Made by a program: the position numbers and the translations under genes. Positions 3,819 through 22,090 of a DNA stretch of 64,000 nt are shown piece after piece. Each line of letters opens with the position of its first letter. Position 1 is the first letter of the stretch. Below the pieces are notes generated by a model that worked only from the letters and a program-made list of their open reading frames with translations, was not told the origin of the DNA and ran no database searches. The stretch comes from Ilex aquifolium. Lineage: Eukaryota > Streptophyta > Magnoliopsida > Aquifoliales > Aquifoliaceae. Location of the stretch: NCBI GenBank assembly GCA_951799425.1, contig OX637398.1, forward strand, positions 19,354,270 through 19,418,269, written 5' to 3'.

Positions 3819-3840
3819 TTTGCCCCGCATGCCCCAAGCC
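3819..3840 (-). promoter_or_regulatory. Imperfect polypurine tract
   Basis: On the minus strand the bases next to the 3' LTR read GGGGCATGCGGGGCAAA, a G-rich but interrupted tract where plus-strand DNA synthesis would be primed. Confidence 0.55.
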
Positions 3841-4149
3841 TCTGATTACTTGCGAGAGAAGGGGGTTTGAGGGCATGAGTTTTTTCTTCACTTGGACGAG
3901 CAGGAGTTTTCTTGTTCCGCACTGTGGTTTCTTCGTCTTCCCCGTTTCACCACTGAACACCCATCGTCCCAAATCGAAAAGAATTCCATGTCCACTGAAT
4001 CTTTTTTTTATTCAGGACAATCCTTACAAGCTCTCCAAGTACCACATAAATAGATCTGAAACCACTCACCCTCCTTGGTCATCCATTTATTGAACTTAAC
4101 ACTTTTTCCCTTTACGCTTTTATACCATAGGAACCTCCTCAAAAGGGAT

Positions 4150-4930
4150 AGAAAATGGAGCTAAGGGGAAATAGGTCACAGTTGAAACCTAGCTTTAACA
4201 ATATCCCGGTGAAATCTGGCGAAACTTCATATCCCCCAAAGGAGGCACTCATCACCGGAGACAAGAGGCAGATCAACATGAGCAGCTTCAGAGTGGCTGC
4301 CCCCACTGGGTTGCTAGACAGAGCAAAGGAAGGCGACGCCATGGGAGGTAAGAGGGGCAGCGCCCATGCCACTGGCGACGCCATGGGAGTCGAAGACAAT
4401 GGCGCCTATGGCGCCGGAGGCCACGCCACAAGGAGCGAGGCAAGAGATGGCTTCCGAGGGGTGATGGGCGACGCCGAGGGCTTGGATGGTGCCAACATCG
4501 CGACGGGTGAGGTCCCGAAAGGGAGAGACGGCGCCATAAGCAGCGTGGGCGACGCCCTGGCTACTTGGGTCTTAGTCTTGGTGGCGGTGGAGGTGAGATG
4601 GACGATGGCACCTCAGTTGTAGGATGTATAGGCGACACCTCAAGCATTGAAGGGGGAACCCAGCTGCAAGGAGGCACCTAAGAGGAGTGGGGTGGCGCCT
4701 ATCATGCTCTGGGCAGAGCCAGCGGCATGCCAGACGGCGCCAGTGGTGCGCTAGGTGGCAGTGGAGGCAGCTTCGGCGGCGCCCCAGGCGCGATTCGAGC
4801 CTCCTTTTGTGAGGCCAATGATGAGGGCGACGGCGGGCGTAGGCCAAGTGGCGGCGCCGAAGAGTTGGACGACGCCGGTGGAGTCTTGGGCGCCCTTGTT
4901 CTTCAAACGGGTAAGATGTTCTTCTGAACT
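4150..4930 (+). other. GC-rich, GGCGAC-repeat block upstream of the antisense gene
   Basis: A G+C-rich island in an AT-rich window, built from irregular repeats around GGCGACGCCATGGGAG-like and GGCGGCGCC-like words. A plus-strand frame at 4155-4622 reads as Gly/Ala/Asp-rich with recurring GDAMG, and the minus strand is also open. I cannot assign a protein. It lies just 5' of the antisense gene and 3' of the 3' LTR in element terms, so it may be leader or promoter DNA of that gene, or an expanded low-complexity insert. Confidence 0.4.
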
Positions 4931-5212
4931 TTGTGGCATACATTCTGAAATTTTCTTTACAGTTTTCATGACATACCCCTAGTATGTGATTTAGAAAATC
5001 GTTTAGGTTTCAGGGGTGCTGCCCCCGAGCCCCTGCCACCTGACCAGGCAGGTCGATCCCCGAAATTCAGTCGAAGAGCAACATGGACATAGCTGGATTC
5101 AAACATAGCTAGACTCCACAACAGTCCAACAAGCACTAATATTCCCTTGACATTGAATTTGATTACGTCTTGGTTCTGTTTGTTGCCAGATACCCACTTT
5201 GACAAGCGCATT

Positions 5213-6194
5213 ATGGGGGAGGCTACTCTAGACATCGAGCGAGGAAAGAGGACTGCTGGAGATAATGGCTCAAATGTGACCTCCATATTTAGCTCCATTG
5301 ACTGCGATGATGATATCGCCCGTATTGTGTCTTCGTACCGCATCCTTCCTACTGTCCTGTGTCGTCGGGCGGAGGAGGACGAGCCAGCTTGTTGTGCCAC
5401 TTCGGGTGAGATTGTTCTCTATGAGGATGCCCTGGAGGCGGGTTTAAGGCTTTCGATACCCGATCCTATCTGTCAGATTCTAGGGCACTTATCGCTGAAT
5501 CCTGGGTGGTTGGCTCCCAACGGGTGGAGGGTGATACTGGCATTCTTCTCATTATGGCAGCTGGTTCATTGTGCTGACGTCCCTCCCCCATTCGAGGAGT
5601 TCTTGGCCACGTATGTGCTTTTGGATAACCCTTTTCCTCATCAAGGGTGGTGTCGTTTCGCCCCGAGGTCGGGCAAGTTCATCACTGGGCTTCCTTTGAA
5701 CTGTCATAGCTCGAAGTCTAAGTTCTTCTTTGTTGGAGGCGAGTGGGCCACCGAGGGAGATCGCGACCTAGTGCCTTCGAGGTGGGACACAGTCTTGAGG
5801 ACCAAGCTAGGTAAGGATTCCACTTTCATCTTTACTTCCAGTCGTTACATATCTGTTCTCACCGTCTAATTGGTTTCTATGTAGTTTCACCCACATTATC
5901 TGCAGAGCAAGAGAGTAGGCTCCAGATAGTTCGTGAGCATTCTTTCAAGGAGTTTTCAGAGATTATGTCCGCATCAGGTTGTCCCAAGGTTTCTCATTGG
6001 CCGAAGAGGAAAGGTACCTGATCCTTCCAATAGACTCTTGATGGTTACTACGTTGTAAGTTCTTGTCTTACACTAAGTTTGTAGGTACTTCTATTGATAG
6101 GGCGATGGTGGAGGCTGTCTACGCTTCTAGGGTGGCGTCTTCCCCTCCTTCTTCTAAGAGGCGAGGTCTGATGCCCCTAGTGTTTCTCGGCTGA
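5213..6194 (+). CDS. Antisense gene of the first Tat element, three exons, C-terminally truncated
   Basis: Runs opposite to gag-pol, between integrase and the 3' LTR. Exon 1 (5213-5810, MGEATLDIERG...) is open for 199 codons. A GTAAGG..TAG intron (5811-5884) and a GTACCT..TAG intron (6014-6084) join exons 2 (5885-6013) and 3 (6085-6194) in frame, ending at TGA 6192-6194. Exon 1 aligns with 22006-21367 of the second element: SYRILPTVLCRRAE, PNGWRVILAF, FVGGEWA, LVPSRW. Introns 1 sit at the same place and phase in both. It resembles the plant family annotated in Pfam as putative gypsy-type transposon (Transposase_28), from memory. Antisense ORFs are known in Tat elements, but their role is not. 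The coiled-coil exon of the second element is missing. An upstream in-frame ATG at 5147 is an alternative start. Confidence 0.65.
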
Positions 6195-6441
6195 GGTCTG
6201 CCGGCCATACTAGGATGAACTCTGGAAGACGATGGTATCTTTGTATTTATGTTTTTATTGCTAGGTTATGTTCTATCTTTTGTAAATGCTTTATGAACTT
6301 CTATGAGATACAACTTTTTGAAAAAATCTTAAGAATTTTTATTTCATAATCCGAAATAAATATTAAGGAAAATTGACCAAAATAAAAATAAATAATCTAA
6401 ATGGTGAATACTGACTTATACACTCACTTCCTTGCCCCCAG

Positions 6442-7722
6442 CTATTGGTAATATTTCTTTAGGTGCTCTGCGTTCCATGGATGGGCCAGAACTTTTCCCT
6501 CGGAATTTTGAATTCTGTAGGTGCTCGGTCTTACAACTTCCGTGACTGTGTAGGGTCCTTCCCAGTTAGGTGCTAGCTTCCCTTCTCGGGAGTCTTTGGT
6601 AGACAAGATAACCTTTTTGAGGACTAGGTCCCCGGGCAAGAAGGAACAAGGCTTCATCCTCGAGTTGTAGTACTTGGTCATGCGACGTTTGTACTCTGCA
6701 TTCCTGAGCATGACTATCTCCCTCTCATCCTCTACCAAGTCGAGGTTGATGCAGAGACCTTCTTCATTACTGGTAGGGTCATGGTGCTGCACCCTAAGGG
6801 AGTGTACCCCAATCTCAACGTGTATGACCTCCTTTGTCTCGTAGGCTAGGAAAAAAGGGATCTCACCCGTGGGGCTCCTTGGTGTCATCCGGTAAGCCCA
6901 CAACACTCCCGGGAGTTCGTCTACCCATCGTCCTTTTGCACTCTCCAATCTGGATTTCAAATTGCAGAGGATGGTTCTGATCGTGACCTCTGCTTGCCCG
7001 TTTGCTTGTGGATGGTCGGGGCTGGAGTGGGGCTGCTTGATTTGTAGATCGACACAGAAGCTGTTAAGGAGTTTGTTGTCAAACTGCTTAGCATTGTCAC
7101 TCACAATGGCGTGAGGTATTGCGAAGCGGTAGACTATACTCCTCCATATGAAGTCTTTTACCTTCTGGTCTATTATCCTGGCTAAGGCCTCGACTTCTGC
7201 CCACTCAGTAAAGTAGTCAATGACTATCACTACGAACTTGCACTGGCCCCGACTCATGGGTAGGGGACCTAGGATGTCGATCCCCCACATGGAGAAGGAC
7301 CATGGGCTTTGAATGGTGGTGGTCTCTTCTGGTGGATGTCTGGGTACAATCGCGAAGCATTGTCACTTATCGCACTTCCTGACGAACTCTCGGGTGTCTC
7401 TAATCAGGCTAGGCCAGTAGTAACCTTGCCTCACTGCTTTGTGGGCTAGTGCACGCCCTCCCGAGTGATTTTCACATATCCCTTCGTGGATTTTCCTCAT
7501 GACGTAATTGGCTTCCTCAGGGGTAAGATAACGGAGAAGTGGAAGTGAGTAACTCTTTTTGTAGAGTGTGTCGCGTAAGATGACTTACCTGGACGCTCTT
7601 ATCCTCAAATTTTTGGCTTCCACTGGGTTGTCTGGGAGAGCGCCCGGATGGGTGTCATCCAGTTGGCTTTCGAGGATGTACAATTAACAGCGTCCTCCTC
7701 TGTCTTGAAGGTGCTTGGCTCA
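6442..7722 (-). pseudogene. Integrase of the first Tat element
   Basis: The catalytic core and C-terminal domain are open at 7290-6442: first Asp in WGIDILGPL, second in HAIVSDNAKQFD, Glu in ANGQAEVTI, then the GPYTVTEV / HPWNAEHLKKYY C-terminus with no chromodomain. The zinc-binding part upstream is broken: the second Cys of the CDKC pair near 7365 is TGA (TGC in the second element), and frameshifts lie further up. Ends at 6442, 250 bp from the antisense gene that converges on it. Confidence 0.88.
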
Positions 7723-7724
7723 AA

Positions 7725-8501
7725 CTAGTGGCCTTTCAGTGCCGGGCCCATGAGTATGTTGGCAGATGCGAATTTGGCGAGGGCGTCTGCCATGGCATTC
7801 TCCTCTTGGGGCACATGGTGGATTTGAAAGTAGGTAAACTTTTTTAACAAAGCATGGACCATTGATAGGTATTCTTGTATTCTTTCCTCATTTGCTTCAA
7901 AGTCTCCCTTTACATGGTTGACTATCAGTTGTGAGTCATTGTAGGCTGTCAAGCAGAGGGCCTCCATCTTCAATGCGAGCTTCAACCCTGATATGAGGGC
8001 CTCATATTCAGCTTGGTTGTTTGATGTAGCAAAGTGGAGGGAGACGGCGTACTTCAGCGGAGTGCCATGGGGGCTGATCAGCACTAGTCCCGCGCCACCG
8101 CCCCCGTAGGTGGAGGACCCATCCATGTAGAGTCTCCAACTTGGTATAGTAGACGGTAGCGAGGGCAAGGAGGGTTCAGGTGGAGTAGGCACAAGGGAGT
8201 TGGATGCCTCTAGTCTCGAAGTGTGGTCTCCCAGGGCCTGTGGAGCTGTCTCCTGGACGTCGGGCCCCCTCGGGGTAGTGTTTGGGCTAGCCTCATGGTG
8301 GGTGAAGGCAGTATGTATTGAGCAGGCGGGCGCAGGGGCACGTGATACTTCCTCTCGGGACTCCTGTGGTGGGGTATAATCCCGGGACTCCTGTGGCGGC
8401 GTAGAATCTTGGGACTCCTGTGGTGGCGTAGAATCCCAGGACTCCGGTGGCGGTGTAGACTCGGCCACAAAGTCCGCAAGTGCTTGTGCTTTGATGGCCA
8501 C
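7725..8501 (-). pseudogene. Linker plus second (archaeal-type) RNase H of the first Tat element
   Basis: 258 codons without a stop. Residues 1-40 are the conserved AIKAQALADFVAES motif followed by a four-fold TPPQES repeat. Residues about 120-250 are an RNase H with all four catalytic acids: D in LYMDGSS, E in NQAEYEAL, D in YNDSQLI, D in NAMADALA. The domain removes the RNA strand after reverse transcription, and an extra copy at this position is the hallmark of the Tat lineage. It is the best preserved catalytic part of this element, but it is fused by frameshift to broken neighbours, hence pseudogene. Confidence 0.88.
8330..8470 (-). repeat. 24-bp coding minisatellite in the RNase H linker
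   Basis: The unit encodes S-x-D-x-TPPQE and occurs four to five times in tandem with few changes (TPPPESWD, TPPQESQD, TPPQESRD, TPPQESRE). It lies between the first RNase H and the second RNase H. The same linker of the second element holds an unrelated, larger repeat (17330-17870). Confidence 0.85.
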
Positions 8502-9690
8502 CCTCGGCTAGTACTGTACATCGAACTCACTTAACTCGACGGCCCACCTGAGTAGTCGGCCGGACACATCGGGCTTTCCCAAGAATTCTTTTGAGTGGTT
8601 GATCTGTAACAACCATGATGGTGTGGCTCTGAAAGTAGTGGTGTAGACGTTTGGCGGCGGTGACAAGTGCGAGAGCCAAATTTTCAAGCTCTGAGTACCT
8701 TACCTCTGCTCCTCGGAATGCCCTGCTTACATAGTACACAGGCTTCTGGATGCCTCCATCCTCCCGGACGAGGACAAAGCTCACGACATAGGGTGAATAA
8801 GAGAGGTAGAGATATAGGGTCTCTCCCGGTACAACATGAGAGATCCAATGTGGTGTGACGAGGTAGGCCTTGAGTTTCTGGAAGGCCTCCTTTGCATCTG
8901 GTCCCCACTAGAAAGACCTGCAGAGGATTTTAAAGAAAGGTAGACACTTATCTGTTGATTACGAGACAAACCTGTTGAGGGCTGCTATCATCCCGTTAAG
9001 GCGCTGGACCTCCTTTACCGAGGCTGGGGACTTCATCTCCAAGATGACTCTGATTTTGTCTGGGTTGGCTTCAATGCCCCTTTTGTTGACCATGAAGCCT
9101 AAGAATTTTCCTGAACTGATGCCAAAGACACATTTTTCAGGATTCAGCTTCATCCTATAGGCTCTTAGTACATCAAAGGTTTCCTGAAGGTGTGTCACAA
9201 GGTCTGCTGCAGCCATACTCTTCACCAACATATCATCTACGTAGACCTCCATAGTCTTCCTCATCTGAGCCTCGAACATCTTGTTCACGAGTCGCTGATA
9301 TGTGGCTCCGGCATTCTTGAGTCCGAAAGGCATCACCCTGTAGCAGTAGGTGCCCTTCGGTGTGATGAATGAAGTTTTCTCCTGGTCTAGAGGAAATATG
9401 CTGATTTGGTTATACCCGGAGTAGGCATCCAAAAAACTTAGGAGCTCGTGTCCCGCGGTGGCATCAATGAGGAGATCGATGTGTGGAAGAGGATAGCTAT
9501 CCTTGGGATAGGCTTTGTTGAGCTCCATGAAGTCCACGCAGAGGTGCCACTTCCCATAGGCCTTCGTAACCATCACTACGTTGGATAGCCAGTCTGGGTA
9601 TGCTACCTCCCTTACTGACCCATTTTTTAGTAGCTTCTCTACTTCCTTTTTCATGGCTTGACCTCTCTCTGTACTTACATTCCTCAGCTT
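8500..9690 (-). pseudogene. Reverse transcriptase and first RNase H of the first Tat element
   Basis: The reverse transcriptase core is well preserved at 9654-8959: LCVDFMELNKA, then DAYSGYNQI, then the MPFGLKNAGATYQ stretch, then the catalytic YVDD box in MEVYVDDMLVKS. A TAA ends the frame right after the thumb (LNRFVS). The connection and Ty3-type RNase H follow (YYVSRAFRGAEVRYSELEN, VVTDQPL). The first catalytic Asp of this RNase H is absent, as is known for Tat elements, where a second RNase H takes over. A one-base insertion near 8565, by comparison with 17195-17205, throws the frame before the linker. Confidence 0.88.
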
Positions 9691-9959
9691 CTAGCGGATG
9701 GGTTTGTACCTGGGATCGACGTTGAGTCGGTGGGAGGCCACTTCAGGGTCGATGCCCTCCAGGTCTTCGTAGGACCATGCAAAGACATCCTTGTTCCACC
9801 TGAGGAAGTCTACCAGGTCGGAGGCTTGCTCCTGGGAAAGTGAGGAGCCTATATAGACTCTCCTCTCTGGAAGGCTCTCGTCCACTGCTACTAGCCGAAG
9901 TTCTGCTGGTTCCCCTCTCTCCAAGGTGTTGTCATCCCTCGGGTCAAGTACTTCGACTT

Positions 9960-10440
9960 GGAGAGTCTCGTGTGGCTTTCTGGCCCTAATAGAAGCCACA
10001 TAACACTCCTGGGCGGAGACCTGGTCTCCTTTGATCTCTCCAATCCCACTGGTGGTTGGAAAATGGAGGAAAATGTGGTAGGTGGACGACACCACCCTTA
10101 AGGTGTTGAGGGCAGGGTGTCGCAGAATAATATTATAGGTAGATGGACAATTAAGTACAATAAAATTTACCATGATGGTGGAACTCATCGGTGCTGTTCC
10201 TGCTGTGACCGGCAGGGTGATGGAACCCAAGAGATAAGCCATTTCCCCCGAGAAGCCAACAAGGGGAGTCCTAACGGGTTGCAATCTCTCCCTGCCCAGA
10301 TGAAGGTTGTCAAAGGCTGGTGCAAACAGAATATCGGCTGAGCTGCCATTGTCGACTAGGATCCTCTTAACCTGGTAGTTGGCTACCATCAGGGTTAAGA
10401 CTAGAGGATCATCATGAGGGACTTGGATCCCCTCAAGGTC
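9960..10440 (-). pseudogene. Retropepsin-like protease of the first Tat element
   Basis: Aspartic protease fold with KRILVDNGSSADILF at about 10375-10330, then hydrophobic strands and NIILRHPALN (usually ILGRPAL, here with Arg for Gly). The catalytic triad reads D-N-G, whereas the second element has D-S-G (15423-15431). Ser/Thr is normal at that position, so this copy probably lacks activity. It is in the same frame as the downstream reverse transcriptase, separated by a stop at 9691-9693. Confidence 0.8.
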
Positions 10441-10649
10441 CCTGTCTAAGAAGGTGATGACCTCTTCCTCCCCGTGCCGGGGTGTCTTCGATGGGCGAGA
10501 GTCATGTGACTCTGCTTGTCTGGCTTTCTGGGTGTGCGCTTTTCTGGCAGAGTTGGAGTCAACTCTTCCTCTAACCCTTTGGTGATAATCTGGATCTCTT
10601 CGAGGGGCTATTGGCGCTCACGATCCTCCTGATTTCGGTTGGGTGGTGG

Positions 10650-12139
10650 AGCCGGTCCTCGACTAGCAATATACTGCCTCAGCTGGCCACACTGAATAAG
10701 CTCCTCGATCTACTTCTTTAACTGGAAGCAGTCGTCTGTGTCGTGGTCGTGGTCGCGGTGGAAGCGACAGTACTTGCTGGAATTTCTGCGATTTGGGTCG
10801 GACTTCATTTTTCCAGGCTAGTAGAGCGTGGGGTCATCCTGTATCTGGAATAAGATGTGCTCCATCGAGGTGTTGAGTGGCGTGAAAGGCTGCCGTTCTC
10901 TCGGGGGTACGGGACTGAGACGGTCCTTGACAAAGACTCTCTCAGTTCTCTTTCTCTTGTTCTCTGCCTCCCGCTTGTCTTCACGGGTATCCTTCCTTTT
11001 TTCCCCTCCTCGGGAGGACTCACCTCGACAGGCCTTGGTGACGTCCTTGGCATTCATGTACTTCTATGCCATTGATAGCAGCTCATGCATGCTGGAGGAC
11101 AGCTTCTTGAGGAAGAGAACATGAAGCTGGAGGAGCGCAGATCAGCAATAAAGGCGGCCAGGGCTACCTTATCGTCTGGCTCCTCGATCTGGAGAGCTTC
11201 CACGTTGAAACGAGTGAGGTAGCTCCTAAGGCTTTCATCCCGGTCTTGCTTGATGGTGAGCAGGTGGGTAGCAGACTTCTGATGTCGGCGTCCTCTAATA
11301 AAGTGGGAGACTAAAGATTTACTCAGCTTTGAGAAGGAGTGGATAGAGAAGGGTTTGATCTTCGCGAACCATTGTCTAGTAGACCCCTTCAAGGTGGTGG
11401 GGAAGGCTCTACACATGATCTCATCAGGCACGTTGTGGAGTTACATGAGAGACTTATAGGTGTCAAGATGATCCAGATGGTCTTTGGTACCGTCGAAGAT
11501 CTCGATGACAGACATCTTAAACTTCGAGGGTAAGGAGTAATTGACAATCTCTACAACGAACGGGGTATTAGTGTGCCTTACTAAGTAATCCACTGTCTCA
11601 AGCGCCTGTGCCTTAATGGCGTTGAGGGCATCACCGAGTTGGTTTTGCACCTCTCTGATCTTCGCGTCCCATTGGTTGGGGGCATCCTCCGTCGGGTTAT
11701 TGTAATGGCTTTCATGATTGGCATACTGGCTTTCTCCCCGTCCTCCTGCGCAGGTAAATGAGGAGAGGGAACATGTAAGCTTTCTGCACGTTGAGGAGGG
11801 ACTCTTGGGCGAGGGGCGCCCGAGGGCGTTCTGGCGCGAGGCTCCATGGTGGGGGGCGGCTTGGCTCCTAGAGTGAAGAGGTTGTAGTGCTTCTCTCGTT
11901 GGAGGGAGTGGTGTTCCTCCTACAGGCTGAGGGGCGACGCCTCCCTGGGCGAACATCAACTGAATGATTTGTTGGTTCTGGTTTACCAGCAGCTGCATGA
12001 TCTGTAAAAGCTGTTTCCTGACCACGGGAGTCGCCGTAGCGGATGGTTCTGAGGGTGCGAGGGGAGGCGGAGCCTCCTCCTAGGGGGTTGGGTTGTTGTC
12101 TCCCGGTTGTTGATTCATCGACTTGGTCGTGATTGCCAT
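10650..12139 (-). pseudogene. gag of the first Tat element, disrupted
   Basis: The start codon is at 12137-12139 (MAITTKSMNQ), matching the start at 13648 in the second element (MAITIRSMNQ). A Pro/Gln-rich N-terminal part is followed by the gag core (EIMCRAFPTTLKGSTRQWF, then SLRSYLTRFN, near 11400-11190). Next come a Lys/Arg-rich stretch and a Cys/His cluster ([15 protein letters not shown], near 10780-10735) that takes the place of a zinc knuckle. Breaks: a TAG about 20 codons in; a TAA in place of the Gln codon read in the second element (LM*LHN versus LMQLHN); a frameshift near 11090 just after SSSFMF; and further stops. The product would be the particle protein. It cannot be made in one piece from this copy. 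Confidence 0.85.
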
Positions 12140-12170
12140 GGAGTAGCAAGGTAGTAGAAAACTTAGTCTT

Positions 12171-12188
12171 TTCCCACAGACGGCGCCA
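12171..12188 (-). promoter_or_regulatory. Primer binding site, tRNA-Asp type
   Basis: Minus strand starts TGGCGCC, complementary to the CCA end of plant tRNA-Asp (which ends GGCGCCA), then continues GTCTGTGGGAA, which matches less well. It lies 6 bases inside the 5' LTR. The second Tat element has the same sequence at 13586-13603. Confidence 0.7.
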
Positions 12189-12194
12189 AACTGA

Positions 12195-12791
12195 TGATGT
12201 ACAAAATAGTCTCGTGCAAGATCAATAGTCGAGTGTGTGATAAGGTGTAATTAATGGACAATTAAATAAACAATCAATGGCAGTAATGTAAATATTGAGT
12301 CAACACACAAATATATAGTGATTCGGTCCGGGTAACCTACTCCACTCTAAGAAACGACAACGGTGGCCAGAGGGTCTTTATTGATAAAGTAAGGTGAACG
12401 GGGGAGAGAGCAATGGTTAGCTTGGAGAGAGATACAATAGCTAGGAGAGAGAGAAGCTATGTGTGTGTAGAGAGGTGTAGAGGTAGAACTCAATATGTCA
12501 TCTCATGTAGAGAGAACTTACAATTTATAGACACAGGACCTTGGTTAAGGCGGTGACTTGGGGGCAAATGTGCTAATTCTCTAGGCGTCTACAAAAGGTA
12601 ATTGCCATAAAAGGTTGTCTTGATCTTCGAGAGAGAGTATCCCGATAATTACTCCTCATGTGCTCTAATTCTTCATGGACTCCTAGGAACTTGGGCTGGG
12701 TCGGATTCACGAACTGGTCTTAAACTTCCTTTTAGCTGACTTTGACTTGGATGATTTATTAGGCCTGACCCAGTTAGATTTGGGTTCATCA
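12195..12791 (-). repeat. 5' LTR of the first Tat element
   Basis: Pairs with 3221-3818. In element orientation it begins TGATGAACCC and ends ACATCA, directly followed by TCAGT and the primer site. Its TATA-like box is at 12531-12539. Confidence 0.92.
12531..12539 (-). promoter_or_regulatory. TATA-like box of the first Tat 5' LTR
   Basis: Reads TATAAATTG on the minus strand, roughly 255 bases into the LTR, a usual place for a core promoter at the U3/R border. The other LTR has the diverged equivalent TATAAGTTG near 3549. The assignment rests on sequence and position only. Confidence 0.5.
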
Positions 12792-13010: not shown

Positions 13011-13579
13011 TGATGGGCCAGGCCCAAAATGCCCAAAACCACGCTGAAGCCCAATTACAATTAAATGCTCAAACTAATGGAGACCCAGCAGGCCCAATGA
13101 GATCCAAGCCCAACTAAGTTCACCATGGAACTATCTCAGCTTGGCTACAACATCCAGAGAGCACTCAGGACCCTTCACCTTCTCTACCACCTTGGAAGCA
13201 GTCAACATTGACCGGGTCTTATGGAGAGCTCCTCAACGGCCTCACCCGTTGAGGAGAATCCGCAAGCTCCACCTGAATAGCTGGGTAGCTGCCACTTAGT
13301 AGCTCCATTCTATTGGGGAATGACTATAAAATGTAAGCCCCACCAACGCTTGGGGGGCATCACACTCTACTGAGCATTAAACCTCCTCTATATCTCTAGG
13401 CTTGTAACTCTCCGTTCTCACTACTCATCGGAATCAATAAAATACCGGCAACCCTTTGCCATTCCAAAGTGGACATAGGTCATACAGACCGAACCACTAT
13501 AATTTCTCTCTCTACTTTAATTATTGCCTTTATTTCCAATTAATTGACAGGTGGTGTACAAAGTCAATTTTGTGCATCA
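13011..13579 (+). repeat. 5' LTR of the second Tat element
   Basis: Starts TGATGGGCC and ends TGTGCATCA, immediately followed by TCAGT and the TGGCGCC primer site exactly as in the first element. The last 25 bases resemble the first element's LTR end, while the rest does not. Contains a TATA box at 13325 and AATAAA at about 13435. Confidence 0.85.
13325..13331 (+). promoter_or_regulatory. TATA box of the second Tat 5' LTR
   Basis: TATAAAA in the context GACTATAAAATG, about 315 bases into the LTR. AATAAAATA follows about 110 bp downstream and may serve as the polyadenylation signal of the R region. Confidence 0.6.
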
Positions 13580-13585
13580 TCAGTT

Positions 13586-13603
13586 TGGCGCCGTCTGTGG
13601 GAA
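13586..13603 (+). promoter_or_regulatory. Primer binding site, tRNA-Asp type
   Basis: TGGCGCCGTCTGTGGGAA, identical to that of the first element. The TGGCGCC start is complementary to the tRNA-Asp 3' end. It lies 6 bases after the LTR. Confidence 0.7.
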
Positions 13604-13647
13604 TCTGACAAAATTCTCATCTTTTTAGTACTTTCTCTATTGGATCG

Positions 13648-14980
13648 ATGGCAATTACTATCAGATCGATGAACCAACATGAAGACAATCCACCACGAGA
13701 GGAGGAGGTTACTCCTCCACCGGCAAATCCTGTCCCAAGTACGCAGCAGATGCTGGAGACCATGCAAGAGCTTGTGGCCCAGAACTAATAGATCCTTCAA
13801 TTAATGCTTGCTGCGCAGGGAGGAGCACAACCTGGACCTCAAGGGAGAGGAGCTCCACGCCTTGGGCGTCAAGAAGCTCCCCACATGGAGGCACCCCATC
13901 AGGGCGCCAGTTTTGGAGTCCACTTAGGCCCCCAGCCTATGGGAGCCCCCCTGGGCGCCCAGCATAGGGGAGCTCCCCATGAGGGACTCCCACCACCTCC
14001 TCCTCCAACTCCTGCTCCTCACGGTGGAGACCCTCCTCTTCAAGAGGATGAGAGTGAAAACCAGAGCATAGAACATGGGAGCCATTTTCATGACAATTCA
14101 AGAGGAGCTCCCAAGCACTGAGACGAGAAAATTAAAGAAGTACAAAATCAGCTAGGTGACGTCTTCAACGCCATGAAGGCGCAAGGACCTGAGACTGTGG
14201 ACTATCTTGTTAGGCGAACTGACACGCCTTTCAAGCCGAACGTGGCGAACTACCCCCTCCCTCAAAAGTTTAAAATGCCATCGGTGGAGACCTTTGACGG
14301 TAAGAAGGATCCACTGGACCATCTGGAGACTTACAAAACTCTAATGCAGCTGCATAATGTCCCCGATGAAATCATGTGCAGAGCATTCCCAACCACCTTG
14401 AAGGGATCCGCTCGACAGTGGTTTGCCAAGCTCGCTCCAGCCTCCATTGCCTCCTTTGCTTGAGCAGGTCCTTCGTGTCACACTTCATTGGAGGGCACCG
14501 CCACCAGAAGCCCGTTACTCACCTGCTCAGCATAAAGCAAGACAAGGACGAAAGCCTGAGAAGCTACCTCACTCGTTTTAACGAGGAGGTCCTTCAGGTA
14601 GAAGAGCCCGATGACAAGGTATCCATGACTGCCTTCTTGGGAGGCCTCCGCTCGTCAAGCTTCCTATTCTCGGTCAAGAAGCGACCACCAAGGAGCATGC
14701 CGGAGCTACTAGCCAAAGCCCAAAAGTACATGAACGCAGAGGACATCACGAGGGCTAGACGAGGTGAGTCGTCCAGAACAGGGGAGAAGAGAAAGGAAAG
14801 AGACAGAGACGACAAGAAGGAGACCAACAATAAACATAGCCGGACAGAGAGGGTACCCGTCAAGGACTGACTTGGTCCTGCTCCTCAGAGGGACCGACAA
14901 GCCTTCACTCCCCTCAACGCCGCTGTCGGGCACATCCTACTCCAGATCCAGGATGACCCCTCAGTAAAATGGCCTGGGAG
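13648..14980 (+). pseudogene. gag of the second Tat element, disrupted
   Basis: Starts MAITIRSMNQ at 13648. The N-terminal part is Pro/Gly/Gln-rich, with GAP/GAQ runs at 13810-14030. The core follows (IMCRAFPTTLKGSARQWF at 14370-14430; SLRSYLTRFNEE at 14555), then a basic stretch (TGEKRKERDRDDKKE) and a Cys/His cluster at about 15010-15065. Breaks: adjacent TAA TAG at 13786-13791 where the first element reads Gln-Gln; a stop near 14119; a frameshift near 14460; and TGA at 14868 in place of an Arg codon. These are mostly C-to-T changes. After 14868 the frame runs straight on into the protease, so gag and pol probably formed a single reading frame. Confidence 0.85.
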
Positions 14981-14981
14981 G

Positions 14982-17190
14982 ATGAAGTCTCCTCCAAATC
15001 GCAGGAACCCAAGCAAGTACTGTCGCTTTCATCGCGACCATGGTCATGACACCGACGACTGTTATGACCTCAAAAGGCAAATTGAGGACCTCATTCAACG
15101 CGGACACCTTCGCCAGTATGTTGTCGAAAGGGGACAGGCGCCGCCGCCACCTCACAATCAAGAAGATCCACATCCCATTGGAGAGATTCACACCATTTCT
15201 GGAGGACTTGCAGGAGGAGGAGAATCCCTCTCTGCCATGAAGGCTCATGCCAGAAAAGCTAGGCATCTTGATGATGAGCGCCCACCCAAGGCGCCCAAGC
15301 ATGGCAACAACGAAGTCATTTCCTTCTCAGACAAGGACTTAGAAGGAATCCATCACCCCCATGACGACCCTCTAGTGCTCACCATGACCGTTGCCAACTT
15401 CCAGGTACGAAGGATCTTAGTGGACAGTGGTAGCTCTGCAGACATCCTATTCGCAGAAGCTTATGACAAGCTCAATCTGGGCAGGGAGAGACTCCGGCCC
15501 ATAAGATCACCCCTCATTGGATTCTCAGGGGAGAAGGTGTATCCCCTAGGGTCTATCACCCTACTAGTCACTGCCGGCGCTGCTCCCCGAAGCTCTACGG
15601 TCATGGTCAATTTTCTGGTAATCGATTGTCCATCTGCTTACAACATCATACTGGGGCGACCTGCTCTCAACACACTAAGAGCTGTGCCCTCCACCTATCA
15701 CCTCATCCTCTATTTTCCAACCCCTAATGGAGTCGGAGAGGTCAGAGGAGATCAGGTAGCAGCAAGGGAATGCTATGTCTCCTCAATGAAGACCAGGAAG
15801 CCACATGAGGCATTGCAAGTAGAGGTCCTCGACCCCAGGGATGATGCCGCCACAGAAAGAGGAGAACCAATCGAAGAGCTCACCTCGGTGGTCTTAGACG
15901 AGGAACATCCAGACAGGAAGATGTACATTGGCTCTTCTCTCTCTAAAGATCTGGTTCACCAGCTAATAGATTTTCTGAAATGCAACATGGATGTTTTTGC
16001 ATGGTCGCATGCAGACCTTGAAGGAATAGATCCTGAGGTGGCCACCCATCGCCTCAATGTCGACCCTCGCTATAAGCCTGTACGCCAGAAGCTAAGGGGC
16101 ACCTCCACTGAAAGGGCCCAAGCAATGGATAAGGAGGTGGGGAAACTAATAAGAAATGGGGCGGTTAGGGAAGTGGCATACCCGAATTGGCTCTCAAATG
16201 TGGTGATGGTGACCAAGGCCAATGGAAAGTGGCGCCTCTGCGTGGACTTCACTGAGCTCAACAAGGCGTGCCCAAAAGATAGTTATCCGCTACCACGGAT
16301 CGACCTCCTTATCGACGCCACAGCAGGGCATGAACTGCTCACCTTCTTGGATGCATATTCTGGATACAACCAGATCAGCATGCACCTCTCAGACCAAGAG
16401 AAGACATCCTTTATCACTCCGAAGGGGACCTACTGCTACAGGGTTATGCCCTTCGGCTTGAAGAACGCAGGGGCAACCTACCAACGGTTGGTGAACAAAA
16501 TGTTCAAGTCCCAGATCGGGCGAACGATGGAGGTCTACGTTGACGACATGTTGGTGAAGAGTTTTGCCGCAGCAGACCATATTGACCATCTCCAAGAAAC
16601 CTTCAACGTCCTAAGGTCATACCACATGAAGCTGAATCCTGAGAAGTGCGCCTTCGGCATAGGGTCAGGAAAATTCTTAGGTTTTATGATTAATTAGAGG
16701 GGAATTGAGGCGAACCCTGACAAGATCAAGGCAATCATCAACATGAAGTCACCAGCCTAAACCAAGGAGCTCCAACGCCTCAACGGAAGAATTGCAGCAC
16801 TTAACAGGTTCGTTTCCAAGTCTGCAGACAAGTGTCTGCCTTTCTTTAAAATTCTCCGAAGGGCCTTCGAGTGGGGACCTGAAGTAGAGGAAGCCTTCCA
16901 GAGGCTCAAGGCTTATTTAGCTACGCCTCATCTTCTTTCACATGCCACTCTAGGAGAAACTCTATATTTATACCTGTCTGCCTCTTCGTCGGCAGTAAGC
17001 TCAGTCCTTGTCAGAAACAGTGAGGGGGTGCAAAGACCTATCTACTACGTGAGCAGAGCATATAGGGGAGCAGAGGTGAGGTATTCAGAGCTAGAAAAGT
17101 AGCACTTGCCCTGATCTCAGCAGCAAGGTGCCTATGACATCACTTTCAGAGTCACGGCATCGTTGTTGTCACAGACTAACCTCTGAAAAG
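14982..17190 (+). pseudogene. Protease, reverse transcriptase and first RNase H of the second Tat element
   Basis: 571 codons are open from 14982 to 16697. They hold the Cys/His cluster ([15 protein letters not shown]), protease with the normal D-S-G (LVDSGSSADILF, 15420-15455) and NIILGRPALN, then reverse transcriptase (LCVDFTELNKA, DAYSGYNQI, YRVMPFGLKNAGATYQ, catalytic YVDD at about 16540). A TAG at 16695 replaces a Lys codon read in the first element (IN*RGIE versus NKRGIE). A TAA follows near 16757, and a frameshift in the first RNase H near 17100. As in the first element the leading Asp of that RNase H is absent (LYLSASSSA). This is the longest intact pol stretch in the window. Confidence 0.88.
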
Positions 17191-17329
17191 AGTTTTGGGA
17201 AAGCCCGATGTATCCGGAAGACTACTTAAGTGGGCAGTAGAACTTGGGGAGTTTGATATCCAGTATCAACCAAGGACGGCCATCAAAGCACAAGCATTGG
17301 CGGATTTCATTGCCGAGCTTACACTAACA

Positions 17330-17870
17330 AAGGAGCAGCACCCTTCTGGCACCCAGAATGGCGCCCAGCCAGCCTCCATGGGCGCCCAGTACTCTTCCGG
17401 CACCCAGAATGGAGCCCAACTAGCCTCCTTGGGTGCCCAGCCAGCTCCCTCAGGCACCCAACACCCTTCTGGCGCCTAGCCGGCTCCCTCAGGCGCCTAG
17501 AATGGCGGCCAGCCAGCCTCCATGGGCGCCCAGCACCCTTCTGGCGCCCAGAATGGAGCCCAGCCAGCCTCCTTGGGCGCCCAGCACCCTTCTGGCTCAC
17601 AGAATGGCACCCAACCAGCTCCCTCAGGCGCCTAACACCTTTCTGGCGCCTAGAATGGCGCCCAGCCAGCCTCCTTGGGCGCCCAGCGCCCTTCTGGCGC
17701 CCAGCCGGCCTCCTTGGGCGCCCAGCCACCCTCAGGCGCCCAGACTGGCGTCCAACAAGCCACTTTGGGTGCCCAGACCCCCTCTGGCACCCAGAATGGC
17801 GCCCAGGAAGCTCCCTCAGGCGCCCAGACCCCTTCTGGATCCCAGTCTGGTACCCAGGCAGCCCAAACTA
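17330..17870 (+). repeat. Expanded coding minisatellite in the RNase H linker
   Basis: About 540 bp built from units of 27-54 bp encoding variants of SGAQNGAQPAS and LGAQHP, with GGCGCCCAG as the commonest DNA word. At least ten units are visible, a few containing TAG (GCG CCT AGC). It lies in the same linker as the TPPQES repeat of the first element but is unrelated in sequence. The antisense strand is also open through it (17319-17729), a by-product of the repeat. Confidence 0.88.
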
Positions 17871-17914
17871 TGGCCTTACCTCCTCCAGAGACCTTTGCGC
17901 GGTCTTCTCTATCA

Positions 17915-18562
17915 CTCTGAAAACTCTACGTTGACGGCTCCTCAACCAACGAAGGAGGTGGAGCAGGCCTCATTCTGATGAGTCCCGATGGTACCTCAAT
18001 CAAGTATGTAGTGAAGCTTCACTTCATGGCTTCCAACAATAAGACAGAGTATGAAGCTCTTCTCTTTGGCCTGAGGTTGGCAGCTGAGATGGAAGCCCAA
18101 CATCTTATTTCATATAGTGACTCTCAGCTGATAGTCAACCAAGTGAAGGGAGAGTTTGAAGCAAAGGGCGCCAATATGCAGGAGCATCTCGCCCTAGTGA
18201 AGGATTTGATCACTAAGTTCCAATATTTCGAAATCCACCACATCCCAAGGGAAGACAACATGGCCGCAGATGCACTTGCTAGGCTCGCCTCATCTTCCCA
18301 ATACCTCTCAGGACCAGCATTCATCGGCCATCAATTTGAACCAAACAGGTTAGACATGGGGGCCGCGACAGTCAACTGTGCTTCTGCTGAATCAAATTGG
18401 ATGACCCTGATAAGGGCATACCTCCAGGAGGGTACATTACCAGAAAATCCCCTCGAGGCCAGGAAGCTTAGGATGAGAGCTTCCAAATTCACTATCTTAC
18501 AAGACCCTCTACAAGAAAGGCTACTCCTTGCCATTGTTGCGGTGCCTTTCACCCGAGGAAGC
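17915..18562 (+). pseudogene. Second (archaeal-type) RNase H of the second Tat element
   Basis: RNase H fold with all four acids: D in LYVDGSS (about 17930), E in KTEYEAL, D in YSDSQLI, D in NMAADALA (about 18265). It is open from the TGA at about 17918 (a Trp codon in the first element) to 18565. After it comes the linker toward integrase (NWMTLIRAYLQEGTLPE). The shared position and motifs confirm the Tat assignment. Confidence 0.87.
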
Positions 18563-19631
18563 TGACTATGCATTGCGGGAGATCCATGAAGGAATCTGCG
18601 GGAATCACTCCGGGGGTCGCTCTCTCGTCCACAAGGCACTCCGACAGGGCTACTTTTGGCCTAGTATGGTGAGGGACGCCCAAGGGTTCGCTAAGAAGTG
18701 TGACAAATGCCAGCGCTTCGCTACTGTGTCTAGGCTACCTCCAGAAGAACTCACGGTCATCACAAGTCTGTGGCCTTTCTCCAAATGGGGCATCGACATC
18801 TTGGGACCCCTGCCTCTTAGCAAAGGATAGTGCAAATTTGTGGTGGTGGCAGTCGACTACTTCACCAAGTGGGCAGAGGCCGAACCTTTATCGAAAATAA
18901 CAGATGTGAAGGTGAAAGACTTCATCTGGAAGAACCTGGTATGCCGCTTCGGGATACCCCATGCCATTGTTAGTGACAATGCTAAGCAGTTCGACAACAA
19001 GCTCCTCAACTCTTTCTGCTCCGATCTTCAGATAAAGCAACCTCATTCCAGACCAGCACATCCGCAAGCTAATGGGCAAGCAGAAGTCATGGTGAGAACA
19101 GTGCTACGTAACCTGAAGATAAGGCTTGAAAGAGCGAAGGGTCTTTGAGTTGACGAGCTCCCAGGTGTCCTATGGGCTTACAAAACCACGCCAAGAGCCC
19201 CAACCAGAGAGACCCCCTTTTCTCTTGCCTTTGGAATTGAAGCAGTCCTCCCTGTGGAGATCGGGATTCATTCTCTAAGGGTCCAGCACCACGACCCCAT
19301 CACCAACGAGGAAAGGCTCCGCATCAACCTCGACTTGGTAGAGGAGGCAAGGGAAATGGCTGTGGTCCGCAACGCCGAGTACAAGCACCGCATGACGAGG
19401 TTCTACAGCTCGAGGGTGAAGCATCGTTCCTTCCAACCAGGTGACTTGGTGCTCAAAAAGGTGATCCTCGCCACAAAGGACTCACGCGAAGTGAAGCTTG
19501 GACCAAATTGGGAAGGACCCTACCTGGTAACAGAAGTGGTGAGGCCAGACACATACAAGATCCATAATTATGAGGGGAAAGTCTTACTCCATCCGTGGAA
19601 TGCCGAACACTTGAAGATGTACTACCAATGA
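18541..19631 (+). pseudogene. Integrase of the second Tat element
   Basis: The zinc-binding H-H-C-C set is intact here (EIHEGICGNH..CDKC, 18570-18715). Core: D in WGIDILGPL, D in HAIVSDNAKQFD (18960-19000), E in ANGQAEVMV (about 19085). The C-terminus ends NAEHLKMYYQ at 19631. TAG at about 18827 and TGA at about 19146 interrupt it. Both replace codons that are sense in the first element. Downstream to 19890 is 3' untranslated DNA in which the antisense gene terminates. Confidence 0.88.
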
Positions 19632-19890
19632 CACTTGAGAGAGTCAAAGTAATAAACGTTGAGGACTTGGTTTTATTTTCTGCCTTTTTTGGGATTATTA
19701 CCCAGTATTTAATGTACTTTCTTGGGGCTACTACCCGAGATCGCTTGATAAAAGCAAGGGATGAATAAAATTCTCTACATTTTACTCCAAAATGATTTTT
19801 GCATTTTCATTCAATTTCAAAGGAGTATCAATACAAAAGTAAGACTATGAACCGTCTTTTTCCTAAAAAAAAAAAAAAGTCCCCAATACT

Positions 19891-22006
19891 CTAGCTACTC
19901 TCATGGTCGTCCCCCTCCTCCTCCTCCTCATCATCCTCAGCCTCGCCAGAGCCTCCATCACCATTATCAGGCGCCTCAGTCGGCATGAAGCCTGAGACAT
20001 CAATATCAGGATAGACAGCTGAGATCTTCCCTCGAAACTCATCATAACCGTCAATGAAGGCATCTGCAAGACCATTAATCAAATCTCTCTCAGCTGTGAC
20101 AGCCCTTTCCTCAGCCTGCAGAGCTCTCTCATGAGCTGCCTTCACCTCTGCCCCCGCGGCAGCCTCTCTGAGCATGACCCTCTCACGGGTCTTTGCAAGC
20201 TCAGCCTCACTAAGCGTGTCTCTCTCACGGGCCTTCATAAGCTCAGCCTCTCTGAGCGCGTCCCTCCCATGGGTCGCTAAAAGCTCAGACTCAAGATTAG
20301 TAGTCTTCTCACAAGCTTCCTTAAGCTCAGCCTCGAACCTGGCCGCCTTCTCATGGGACTCCAAAAGATCTGTCTCCCTCAACGCGACCCTCTCACGGAT
20401 CGCCGCAATCTCAGCCTGAGAAGCCCTGTTAGCAACTTCTAACTCAGCAATCCTCACTCGAGCCGCAATGAGCTCATTTTGCATAGCATCATGATCTTGC
20501 TTCATCTGGTGATGACTATAAGTCCTTGAAAGTAAGCACATGGATACAGTAGAAGCCTGAAGAAAGATAAAAGTCAGAGGAAGCTTAAGAAAGGACTGGA
20601 GAAAGGGATGCAACTAACCCTTACCTGAGCCAGGCCTTCCAAAAAATTGCGGACAATCCTTTCGGTACCCAGGGCATTAATCCCGATAACATCATCAGAA
20701 AACACAAACCGCCCAAGTCGATCTCTTATGATGGATGCATTACCCAACATGGAGCTGATCAATGGTGCACTTCTTGGAGCTCCCACAGGAGGGGACGAGG
20801 AACCTGGAGCAGAAGGTGTAGTCAAAGAGGTCCCCAGAGTAACAGGTGCAGATGAAGGAGTCGTCGCAACAGGAGGCACTTGATGGGGACACACCCAAGG
20901 AACCACTGAAGGAGTTGCTTGAAGGGAGTTCACCTCGCTCGACACATTTGAAGAAGTCACTTGAGAGGCACCCTCCTTCCTCGCCACCTTGGGAAGATGA
21001 GGGCTCCTACCGGAGAGGCGGGACCCAATAACCCCCCTATACATCTCTGCAGAAATAATAAAGTGTTGTAGATGAAAAACACCAAACGGAGGTGAAAAGT
21101 ACAAAACAATCAGCGTACATTTTCTCTTCAAAGAGGAACCACTAGACTTGGAAGAGGGAGCATCAGCCTTAGCAGGAACCGAAGAGGAAGCTCCGATTCC
21201 TCCATCTTTGAGCACGAGAGTTCCAAAGTCTCGTATAGGATGAGCTCGCACAGCCTCAAGCTTCCACTCCTGACCCTGGGAGAGTGTAGGAGAACCTGCA
21301 TGGAATACGGTGAGTACACAGCTTACAAGGAATGTGGTAAAAGAAGAGTAAAAATATGGGACGTACCAACTTTTTTTGGAGTAACCCATCGTGATGGTAC
21401 TAGTGCCCTATCAACATCCGAAGCCCACTCTCCACCAACGAATATAAAATGAGTTTTCCAGCTATGTCAGTTGGAAGCCAACCCAGTAATCAGCCTGCCT
21501 CCCTTCAGAGTGAAATAGTACCAACCTCAGTTAGGAGTAGGAGTCTCACTCAGGTAATAGGCTGCATGGAACTCAATAGAAGAGGCATCTTCATGATGCA
21601 CCTTTCTCCACAATTCCAGAAAGGCTAGTAGAACCCTCCAACCATTGGGCGTTAGCCGCCTAGGCGTAAGTGAAAAGTAATTCAAGATGCCACAAACAGA
21701 AGAAGGAATGGGGAGCCTGAGCCCAATCTCAAGCATCTCCTCATAAATGACAATGTCACCAGAGGAGTCATCACTAGCGGGCTCGCCTTTTTCTGCTCGG
21801 CGGCACAACACAGTCGGAGGAATGCGGTAGGCGGAAATAATCCGCGAAATATCAGTGTCTGAAATTAAAGTGCTAGTTAGGGTACTTACTTTGGACCCGT
21901 CGTCGTCACAAACAACTTTGCGTTTGTGTTTTTTGCTGCGGAGACGTGAAGGATTACCCAAACTATTGCCAGGATCCTTGCCATGAAAAGTGCCCAGAGT
22001 GCTCAC
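19891..22006 (-). CDS. Antisense gene of the second Tat element, four exons with coiled coil
   Basis: Exons read on the minus strand: 22006-21367 (start MSTLGTFHGK), 21295-21119, 21046-20625, 20556-19891, with GT..AG borders at each junction. Exon 1 carries SAYRIPPTVLCRRAE, PNGWRVLLAF, FVGGEWAS, LVPSRW, matching the first element. It has two stops, in TPN*GW and SN*HSW. Exon 3 is Ser/Pro-rich, then conserved-looking DRLGRFVFSDDVIG. Exon 4 is fully open: a coiled coil of 14-residue repeats (residues about 50-140), AFIDGYDEFRGKISAVYPDI, and an acidic tail (EDDEEEEEGDD). The exon 2/3 join as read makes a TAG, so that border may be off or mutated. The predicted protein would be nuclear or structural by composition only. 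Function unknown. It resembles plant Transposase_28-type proteins from memory. Confidence 0.65.
20145..20397 (-). repeat. 42-bp repeats encoding a 14-residue coiled-coil unit
   Basis: Six imperfect units of the form RER-V/D-x-LREAEL-x-KA, including HGRDALREAELMKA and RERDTLSEAELAKT, run head to tail in exon 4 of the antisense gene. A 14-residue period is two heptads, so repeat gain or loss keeps the coiled coil in register. The plus-strand frame at 20174-20419 is a shadow of it. Confidence 0.75.
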
Positions 22007-22090
22007 CTCCTGCGTTGTGTACCCTGCACCACTCAGTCCAGCACCTGGAGAGGTGCCTGACCCTCTTTGATCGCCTAATGGAGGAATTAT

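What the first reader, a model, noticed from the sequence alone, without database searches (positions are those of the whole stretch)
19891..22006. Antisense, intron-containing gene at the 3' end of a Tat retrotransposon, better kept than gag-pol
Seen: minus-strand exons with GT..AG borders whose joins, except the exon 2/3 join, keep frame, running opposite to a gag-pol full of stops. Exon 4 is completely open. Known: Tat-lineage elements can carry antisense extra ORFs of unknown role. Inference: the intron structure means the sequence arose or is used as an antisense mRNA, independent of the genomic RNA. A retrotransposon keeps introns only if they are antisense to its own transcript, which this arrangement allows. 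It may code for a regulator or a captured host protein.
Basis: partly seen in the sequence, partly recalled or inferred. Interest (0 to 1): 0.75.

Follow-up and report, generated by a model that had tools for sequence, protein, structure and literature searches.

The report
Spliced antisense gene in plant retrotransposon
A broken copy of a plant jumping gene carries, on its back strand, a four-exon gene of a known but unexplained family whose introns are kept in dozens of related copies, which suggests that it was once made as its own spliced message.

Summary
On the minus strand, 22086-19891, is a four-exon gene, antisense to and downstream of the gag-pol of a Tat-class Ty3/gypsy element (B). 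Exon 1 carries Transposase_28 (TRP28, PF04195); exon 4 is a coiled coil with an acidic tail. The introns (71, 72, 68 nt) lie at the same places in 38, 37 and 39 of 39 copies from the same genome; splice dinucleotides are kept at 96%, against 78-80% for other GT/AG. A much diverged second element (A) in the window has introns 1 and 2 at the same place and phase. Annotated Cinnamomum relatives join at the same residues. This is the known antisense TRP28 gene of Retand elements, so the kind is not new. What the surveys I could read (ORF finding without splicing) do not describe is that TRP28 and coiled coil are exons of one gene. 'Better kept than gag-pol' is not supported: disruption rates are alike and RT is more constrained. 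This copy is dead: exon 1 cut off near 22086, two stops in exon 1, a stop at the exon 2/3 join, no 3' LTR found. Transcription and splicing could not be tested. Best guess: a nuclear, self-associating regulator of the element.

The parts
13011..13579 (+). 5' LTR of element B (TGATGG...GCATCA, 569 bp)
   Evidence: Termini read; a match of about 81-96% lies above the antisense gene in 12 of 14 copies whose upstream stretch was fetched, as their 3' LTR; no second copy in the window (blastn)
13586..13603 (+). Primer binding site, begins TGGCGCC
   Evidence: same stretch at the corresponding place in element A (97% over 37 bp)
13640..19631 (+). gag-pol of element B, broken: in-frame stops at 13786, 13789, 14119, 14868, 16695, 16758, 17135, 17177, 17918, 18828, 19146, and about 3 frame changes; start approximate
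   Evidence: pieces compared one by one; gag, RT, RH, additional RH, integrase
21367..22086 (-). Antisense gene, exon 1 (what is left of it), two in-frame stops; upper end is where B leaves its relatives
21602..21751 (-). Transposase_28 (TRP28, PF04195) match in exon 1
   Evidence: E 8.3e-10, 39.2 bits against cut-off 26.2
21296..21366 (-). Intron 1, 71 nt, GT..AG, phase 1
   Evidence: donor GT in 37 and acceptor AG in 37 of 39 copies; 1 gap each
21119..21295 (-). Exon 2
21047..21118 (-). Intron 2, 72 nt, GT..AG, phase 1; open if retained in this copy
   Evidence: (35 GT and 35 AG of 39, 2 gaps each)
20625..21046 (-). Exon 3 (Ser/Pro-rich linker); the codon shared with exon 2 reads stop in this copy
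20557..20624 (-). Intron 3, 68 nt, GT..AG
   Evidence: (38 GT and 37 AG of 39)
19891..20556 (-). Exon 4: long coiled coil, acidic tail, stop codon at 19893-19891
   Evidence: coiled coil from weak tropomyosin/lamin resemblance and the predicted helix 576-739 of relative P0001
22087..23211 (.). DNA of another repeat family at the cut end of element B (22199-23211 is a truncated LTR of it; 22087-22199 probably belongs to it too)
   Evidence: of the 53 stretches searched 22087-22199 matches only one (L036, a rearranged copy without exon 1), by a match that runs on past 22199
3221..12791 (-). Element A, second Tat-class element, minus strand; LTRs about 3221-3821 and 12194-12791 (88% identical)
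5213..5810 (+). Antisense gene of element A, exon 1 with ATG and PF04195, open
5811..5884 (+). Element A intron 1, 74 nt, same place and phase as in B
5885..6013 (+). Element A exon 2
6014..6084 (+). Element A intron 2, 71 nt, same place and phase as in B
6085..6190 (+). Element A, remnant of exon 3; the rest of exon 3 and exon 4 not found (end approximate)

Best explanation
It is a dead copy of the antisense gene that Retand-lineage (Tat) Ty3/gypsy elements carry between pol and the 3' LTR. In its undamaged form the gene has at least four exons and codes for one protein: variable N-terminal region, TRP28 domain (exon 1), Ser/Pro-rich linker (exons 2-3), long coiled coil and acidic tail (exon 4). 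SHOWN here: the exon-intron anatomy; its conservation in the genome and, for two introns, in a diverged second element; purifying selection in the lineages that gave rise to the copies; decay and truncation of this copy. INFERRED: in active elements the gene is transcribed from its own promoter, opposite to the genomic RNA, spliced and translated. Introns persist because the element moves through its sense RNA, in which they are read backwards and are not spliced out. INFERRED, weaker (about 0.45): the protein enters the nucleus, associates through the coiled coil, and binds DNA or chromatin through TRP28, regulating the element's own expression or integration. The confidence below is for identity and gene anatomy, not for the role.
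For: PF04195 in B and A. Additional RH between RH and integrase, the Ogre/Retand arrangement (PMC6317226, passages). Antisense TRP28 ORFs in 97% of clusters of recent Retand elements (PMC11963269). In 12 of 14 copies whose upstream stretch was fetched a copy of B's LTR lies above the gene, so it sits between pol and 3' LTR. Introns in the copies; splice dinucleotides kept in 196 of 204 cells against 0.78 (117 other GT) and 0.80 (173 other AG) (34 copies). Introns 1 and 2 at the same place and phase in element A, although their sequences align no better than shuffled ones. Of 13 relatives with the exon 1 end motif (of 19), 9 of 9 annotated proteins go straight on into exon 2 and 4 of 4 unnamed single-frame entries do not (P0016 ends four residues on); at the exon 3 end 11 of 12 annotated join as in B, 2 of 2 unnamed run on. 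Divergence by codon position is 0.118/0.089/0.230 in exon 1 and 0.126/0.089/0.180 in exon 2. Omega falls from about 0.70 (dS below 0.1, 7 pairs) to 0.33-0.41 (dS above 0.2); exon 1 about 0.20 in deep pairs. Nuclear localisation and own promoter of the Grande antisense gene, as told in PMC7264820.
Against: No RNA evidence could be consulted. The exon 2/3 join reads stop in 9 of 35 rows, so part of the family spread with it, or splices otherwise. The coding signal of exons 3 and 4 alone is weak: codon-position divergence 0.131/0.131/0.171 and 0.077/0.088/0.115, hardly steeper than the chance differences between the three phases of the short introns (up to 1.3-fold), and omega about 0.57 and 0.46. 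Between A and B only exon 1 DNA exceeds every one of 100 shuffles; exon 2 does not (37% at protein level). Structure models are poor (mean pLDDT 51.7 and 54.3) and Foldseek gave nothing at E 0.001, so DNA binding gets no support from here. No RT tree was made, so Retand rather than a close Tat sister rests on TRP28 and domain order.
Confidence: 0.88

Rival explanations
1. The antisense transcript, not the protein, is what matters: it pairs with the genomic RNA and feeds small-RNA silencing or interferes with reverse transcription.
For: The gene lies inside the stretch that the sense genomic RNA must cover, between pol and 3' LTR. PMC7264820 and PMC12786077 discuss such roles (passages).
Against: Codon-position divergence in exons 1 and 2, omega well below 1 and conserved splice sites point to a protein product in the past.
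Confidence: 0.1
2. The protein acts outside transcription: suppressor of host silencing, or helper of nuclear or cell-to-cell passage of the element.
For: TRP28 has no known biochemical role; coiled coil plus acidic tail fits many functions.
Against: Nothing specific; no other Pfam family reached its cut-off in the exons scanned or in P0001, P0012, P0016, P0019.
Confidence: 0.3
3. A captured host gene or fragment carried by chance in this copy.
For: It has introns, as host genes do.
Against: Same structure in the copies examined, a diverged homologue in element A, relatives in Cinnamomum and wheat; PMC11963269 reports no TRP28 outside transposable elements.
Confidence: 0.03
4. Chance open frames and splice-like signals in decaying DNA.
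For: This copy has three stops and a truncated exon 1.
Against: Family match, introns and splice sites conserved between copies, third-position divergence in exons 1 and 2.
Confidence: 0.01

Closest known systems
Antisense TRP28 (PF04195) ORFs of Retand-lineage elements (Vicient 2025, PMC11963269)
   Same: Position between pol and 3' LTR, antisense, PF04195, Tat-class pol; 11 antisense 'Smc' domains are reported from that region too
   Different: That survey used ORF Finder; the word intron does not occur in its text and splicing only in a cited title (parts 1-3 of 5 read). Here TRP28 and coiled coil are exons of one gene. It found recent Retand elements only in eudicots and Liliopsida; relatives here are in Cinnamomum, a magnoliid (its criterion was identical LTRs, so no contradiction)
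Grande gene23 and Retand ORF4 antisense genes (as described in PMC7264820, parts 1-2 of 3 and word searches; originals not seen)
   Same: Antisense, 3' of pol; transcription detected, for Grande from its own promoter, with a nuclear protein
   Different: PMC7264820 reports no introns for them and asks that spliced antisense transcripts be looked for; whether gene23 is spliced I could not check; no sequence comparison made
Cinnamomum micranthum CKAN_ 'Transposase (putative) gypsy type' proteins
   Same: P0001-P0010 are 44-55% identical over 90-98% of the spliced product, P0011 and P0013 45% over 64-65%; same order of parts, same joins
   Different: Named as hypothetical proteins; their genomic setting was not seen
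HTLV antisense gene HBZ (mentioned in PMC11963269)
   Same: Antisense gene of a retroelement with a nuclear product
   Different: No sequence relation tested; analogy of layout only

Membership tests
Retand lineage (Tat, Ty3/gypsy) | Additional RNase H between RH and integrase (Ogre/Retand arrangement, PMC6317226) | tested here: met
   RT_RNaseH_2 in 16761-17099, RVT_3/RNase_H in 17921-18562, rve in 18831-19145
Retand lineage (Tat, Ty3/gypsy) | Antisense ORF with TRP28 between pol and 3' LTR (PMC11963269) | tested here: met
   B; A; 3' LTR above the gene in 12 of 14 related copies, missing in B
Retand lineage (Tat, Ty3/gypsy) | LTR 315-1194 bp and internal region 7380-12869 bp (ranges in PMC11963269) | tested here: met
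   B 5' LTR 569 bp; A LTR about 600 bp, internal about 8.37 kb
Retand lineage (Tat, Ty3/gypsy) | pol-to-3'LTR stretch 2933-6566 bp | tested here: inconclusive
   About 3.6 kb in one related copy by coordinates (L009/L082, assuming B's spacing below exon 4); A has about 2.6 kb but has lost exon 4 and part of exon 3; B is cut off
Retand lineage (Tat, Ty3/gypsy) | RT sequence falls in the Retand clade | not tested
   no reference RT set was aligned
Retand lineage (Tat, Ty3/gypsy) | Aspartic protease domain | tested here: inconclusive
   no Pfam protease hit in 14871-16694 at E 0.05, where it would lie
Antisense gene expressed as spliced mRNA | Spliced antisense reads | not testable with these tools
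   no RNA data held
Antisense gene expressed as spliced mRNA | Introns and splice sites conserved between copies | tested here: met
Ogre lineage | Plant mobile domain ORF (57% of Ogre elements in PMC6317226) | tested here: inconclusive
   no PF10536 in the pieces scanned; the region 5' of gag was not scanned and 43% of Ogre elements lack it

The most novel reading that the evidence does not exclude
The separate antisense 'TRP28' and 'Smc/coiled-coil' ORFs reported for Retand elements are exons of one ancient spliced gene, kept with its introns throughout the lineage, perhaps since before magnoliids, monocots and eudicots parted (a wheat TRP28 protein, P0019, has the same order of parts; its introns were not seen). 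Surveys that used unspliced ORF finding have split and under-counted it. Retand elements would then be two-transcript elements with a dedicated, spliced antisense gene, as in complex retroviruses, and in part of this family the product may depend on retention of intron 2.
Probability: 0.5. Interest if true: 0.6.

Novelty: new member of a known kind. Interest (0 to 1): 0.42.

Why it matters
The antisense genes of Retand elements have been known for years without a function, and PMC7264820 asks for a search for antisense and spliced transcripts. The anatomy here gives exact junctions to look for in existing RNA-seq, a full protein model (TRP28, linker, coiled coil, acidic tail) instead of fragments, and a possible reason why surveys found these ORFs heterogeneous. 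It does not by itself reveal the function.

Tried and rejected
Structure: AlphaFold2 on P0001 with 18 relatives (mean pLDDT 51.7) and on the TRP28 piece P0016 with 13 relatives (54.3); Foldseek against PDB and BFVD had no hit at E 0.001. PDB sequence search gave only weak coiled-coil hits, lamin and tropomyosin, E 0.15 and 0.81. Relatives in viral contigs and in prokaryote genome contigs: none confirmed. A second protein search gave no new relative, a third five more. TRP28 count in the own genome (PF04195): no answer.

Considered and rejected: lack of an ATG as a sign of an odd start. Rather, B is cut off at about 22086: 28 of 36 copies stay open more than 20 codons beyond it, 25 of them with an ATG, and 12 of 14 have a 3' LTR further up. 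'Exon 4 open, hence selected in this copy': at the gag-pol damage rate 222 clean codons have probability about 0.21. Low dS in exon 4 (0.21 against 0.84 in exon 1, far pairs) as hidden constraint: the copies were chosen by similarity to exon 4, so I draw nothing from it. One search contains one badly aligned row (L036, 23 frame breaks), left out.

Literature: 10 searches. None listed, by title or abstract start, a paper on introns in a Retand antisense gene. The papers on Grande gene23, Retand and extra ORFs (Gomez-Orte 2013, Kejnovsky 2006, Steinbauerova 2011) I know only through citations; I tried to open only the last, which is not held. So I do not claim that the splicing is unpublished.

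Full report
What is there. Window 13011-22086 (+) is a damaged Tat-class Ty3/gypsy element (B): 5' LTR 13011-13579, primer binding site from 13586, gag, RT, RNase H, an additional RNase H and integrase in that order. The pol frame ends at 19631. From 19891 up to about 22086, on the minus strand, lies the antisense gene. Its introns are 21366-21296, 21118-21047 and 20624-20557, each GT..AG and 68-72 nt. Exon 1 carries PF04195 (E 8.3e-10); exon 4 is an open coiled-coil frame that ends in an acidic tail.

Is it more than chance? First, element A on the other strand (3221-12791, LTRs 88% identical) has the same antisense gene at 5213-6190 with introns 1 and 2 at the same place and phase. The exon 1 proteins are 52% identical, exon 2 37%. 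At DNA level only exon 1 exceeds all of 100 shuffles; exon 2 and both introns do not. Second, annotated Cinnamomum micranthum proteins are 44-55% identical to the spliced product over 90-98% of it (P0001-P0010; two more over 64-65%) and go from exon to exon at the same residues: 9 of 9 at join 1, 11 of 12 at join 3. Unnamed single-frame entries leave the exon there instead: 4 of 4 (one ends four residues on) and 2 of 2; that these are unspliced genomic frames is my inference. Third, the genome in which the window lies returned 41 rows for exon 4, from 40 scored of 482 candidates, a lower bound. Apart from the window itself and a second piece beside one copy, these are 39 copies; I fetched all 39 gene stretches, 75-95% identical to B.

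Introns in the 39 copies. Intron 1: donor GT 37, acceptor AG 37, one gap each. Intron 2: 35 and 35, two gaps each. Intron 3: 38 and 37. Both flanking exons align in 38, 37 and 39 copies; of these the intron is 60-90 nt long in 35, 37 and 39, the rest being intron 1 of 1024, 44 and 56 nt; none is cleanly lost. In 34 copies splice dinucleotides agree with B in 196 of 204 cells (96%), against 78% for 117 other GT and 80% for 173 other AG sites (5 of 39 copies dropped as partial or badly aligned).

Selection. Divergence at codon positions 1, 2, 3 is 0.118, 0.089, 0.230 in exon 1 and 0.126, 0.089, 0.180 in exon 2; exons 3 (0.131, 0.131, 0.171) and 4 (0.077, 0.088, 0.115) are also highest at position 3, but hardly more than the unsystematic differences among the phases of the short introns. 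Pairwise dN/dS of the gene is 0.70, 0.48, 0.40, 0.35, 0.41, 0.33 with rising dS (one bad row included), as expected when copies decay freely after insertion while the lineages that produce them are constrained. Against RT, in the 25 rows that have both parts (24 copies and B; of 34 RT stretches 10 were partial or without a hit, and for 5 copies none was fetched), omega in the two deepest bins is 0.16 and 0.12 for RT, 0.35 and 0.35 for the antisense gene, and by exon about 0.20, 0.35, 0.57 and 0.46; in the closest bin it is 0.55 for RT and 0.46 for the gene. Mean dN of the antisense gene is 1.36 times that of RT, while its dS is lower (0.28 against 0.58 in the deepest bin), which is likely in part a result of picking copies by exon 4 and makes the comparison of omegas rough. 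The TRP28 exon is thus the most constrained, somewhat less than RT; linker and coiled coil are looser. A versus B: pN/pS 0.42 (0.35-0.52) for exon 1, 0.62 (0.43-0.88) for exon 2, 0.29 (0.23-0.34) for pol, with silent sites near saturation.

'Better kept than gag-pol'. In B, at least 11 stops and about 3 frame changes in about 2000 gag-pol codons against 3 stops in 617 antisense codons: no difference. Over the 25 rows, stops per 100 codons are 0.27 (antisense) and 0.35 (RT), frame breaks 0.28 and 0.41: slightly fewer in the antisense gene, but events are shared between copies and copies were chosen by exon 4. I take the claim as not supported.

State of this copy. Exon 1 has two in-frame stops; the exon 2/3 join reads a stop, a state found in 9 of 35 rows with B. 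B leaves its relatives at about 22086. In 12 of 14 related copies whose upstream stretch was fetched, a copy of B's 5' LTR (about 81-96%) lies further up, so that the gene sits between pol and 3' LTR. In B there is instead DNA of another family: 22199-23211 is a truncated LTR of it, and 22087-22199 matches only one of the 53 stretches searched, a rearranged copy without exon 1 that has the same foreign family above it. No 3' LTR of B was found in the window. Start region and any promoter are therefore gone, and this copy cannot be expected to make the protein. Some other copies carry no stop in the compared part (7 of 36 rows); I single out none.

How it works. Shown: a protein-coding, intron-bearing antisense gene under past selection. 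From established biology: a retrotransposon that moves through its sense RNA does not lose introns that lie on the other strand. From reports on Grande and Retand (PMC7264820): own promoter and nuclear protein for Grande, weak expression for Retand. Committing myself: a nuclear regulator that self-associates by its coiled coil and contacts DNA or chromatin by TRP28, probability about 0.45. Basic residues before TRP28 (KKHKRK in B) look like a nuclear import signal; the motif is recalled and was not tested. PMC11963269 predicts DNA binding of TRP28; my models were too poor to test that.

Relation to the known. PMC11963269 (parts 1-3 of 5 read; word search): antisense TRP28 ORFs in 97% of clusters of recent Retand elements, 11 antisense Smc domains, ORF Finder used, no mention of introns. 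PMC6317226 (passages): TRP28 in 23% of Retand elements, extra ORFs of at least 250 codons predicted with getorf. That low figure and the separate TRP28 and Smc ORFs are what one would expect if a spliced gene is read by unspliced ORF finding; this is inference. PMC11728184, PMC12786077 and PMC9289625 were seen in passages only. Ten literature searches listed no paper on introns in this gene, but key originals were not seen, so I claim no priority. Novelty: a new member of a known kind, with a gene anatomy that deserves to be tested family-wide.

Noticed in passing
21119/21046 junction in B and copies: In 9 of 35 rows (B included) the codon across the exon 2/3 join is a stop, yet intron 2 is 3n long and open in 8 of these 9, so retention would give an unbroken frame there. 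Either a subfamily spread without the spliced product or it uses intron 2 differently.
   Followed up: partly
window 17308-17914: Tandem 51-bp units (39-bp once) inside pol, between the two RNase H domains, coding a Pro/Gln/Ala-rich linker; PMC11963269 finds Retand repeats most often between pol and the 3' LTR.
   Followed up: no
window 3221-12791: Second, older Tat-class element A on the minus strand with both LTRs (88% identical), flanked by ATTAA / ATTAT (4 of 5 bases alike); exon 4 of its antisense gene was not found.
   Followed up: partly
window 31560-36549 and 41560-44163; fragments 22199-23211 and 23310-25807: LTRs of about 2.6 kb of another family (84-86% alike, one interrupted by about 2.4 kb), and rearranged, partly inverted fragments of it next to the cut end of element B.
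   Followed up: no
L036 and L095: A related copy that lacks exon 1 and has the same foreign repeat family above it as B: similar damage at two places in the genome, by chance or shared origin.
   Followed up: partly
proteins P0001-P0010: Cinnamomum micranthum, a magnoliid, has at least ten annotated TRP28 proteins of this type, although recent Retand elements were reported only from eudicots and Liliopsida.
   Followed up: partly
39 copies, exon 1 to exon 4: Synonymous divergence of distant pairs falls along the gene (0.84, 0.50, 0.37, 0.21 from exon 1 to 4). Probably because copies were picked by exon 4; recombination between subfamilies is the other possibility.
   Followed up: partly
window 4152-4622 (+): Gly/Ala-rich open frame of 156 codons upstream of the TRP28 exon of element A, by eye similar in composition to the variable N-terminal part of the Cinnamomum proteins; perhaps part of a longer first exon or an upstream exon.
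   Followed up: no
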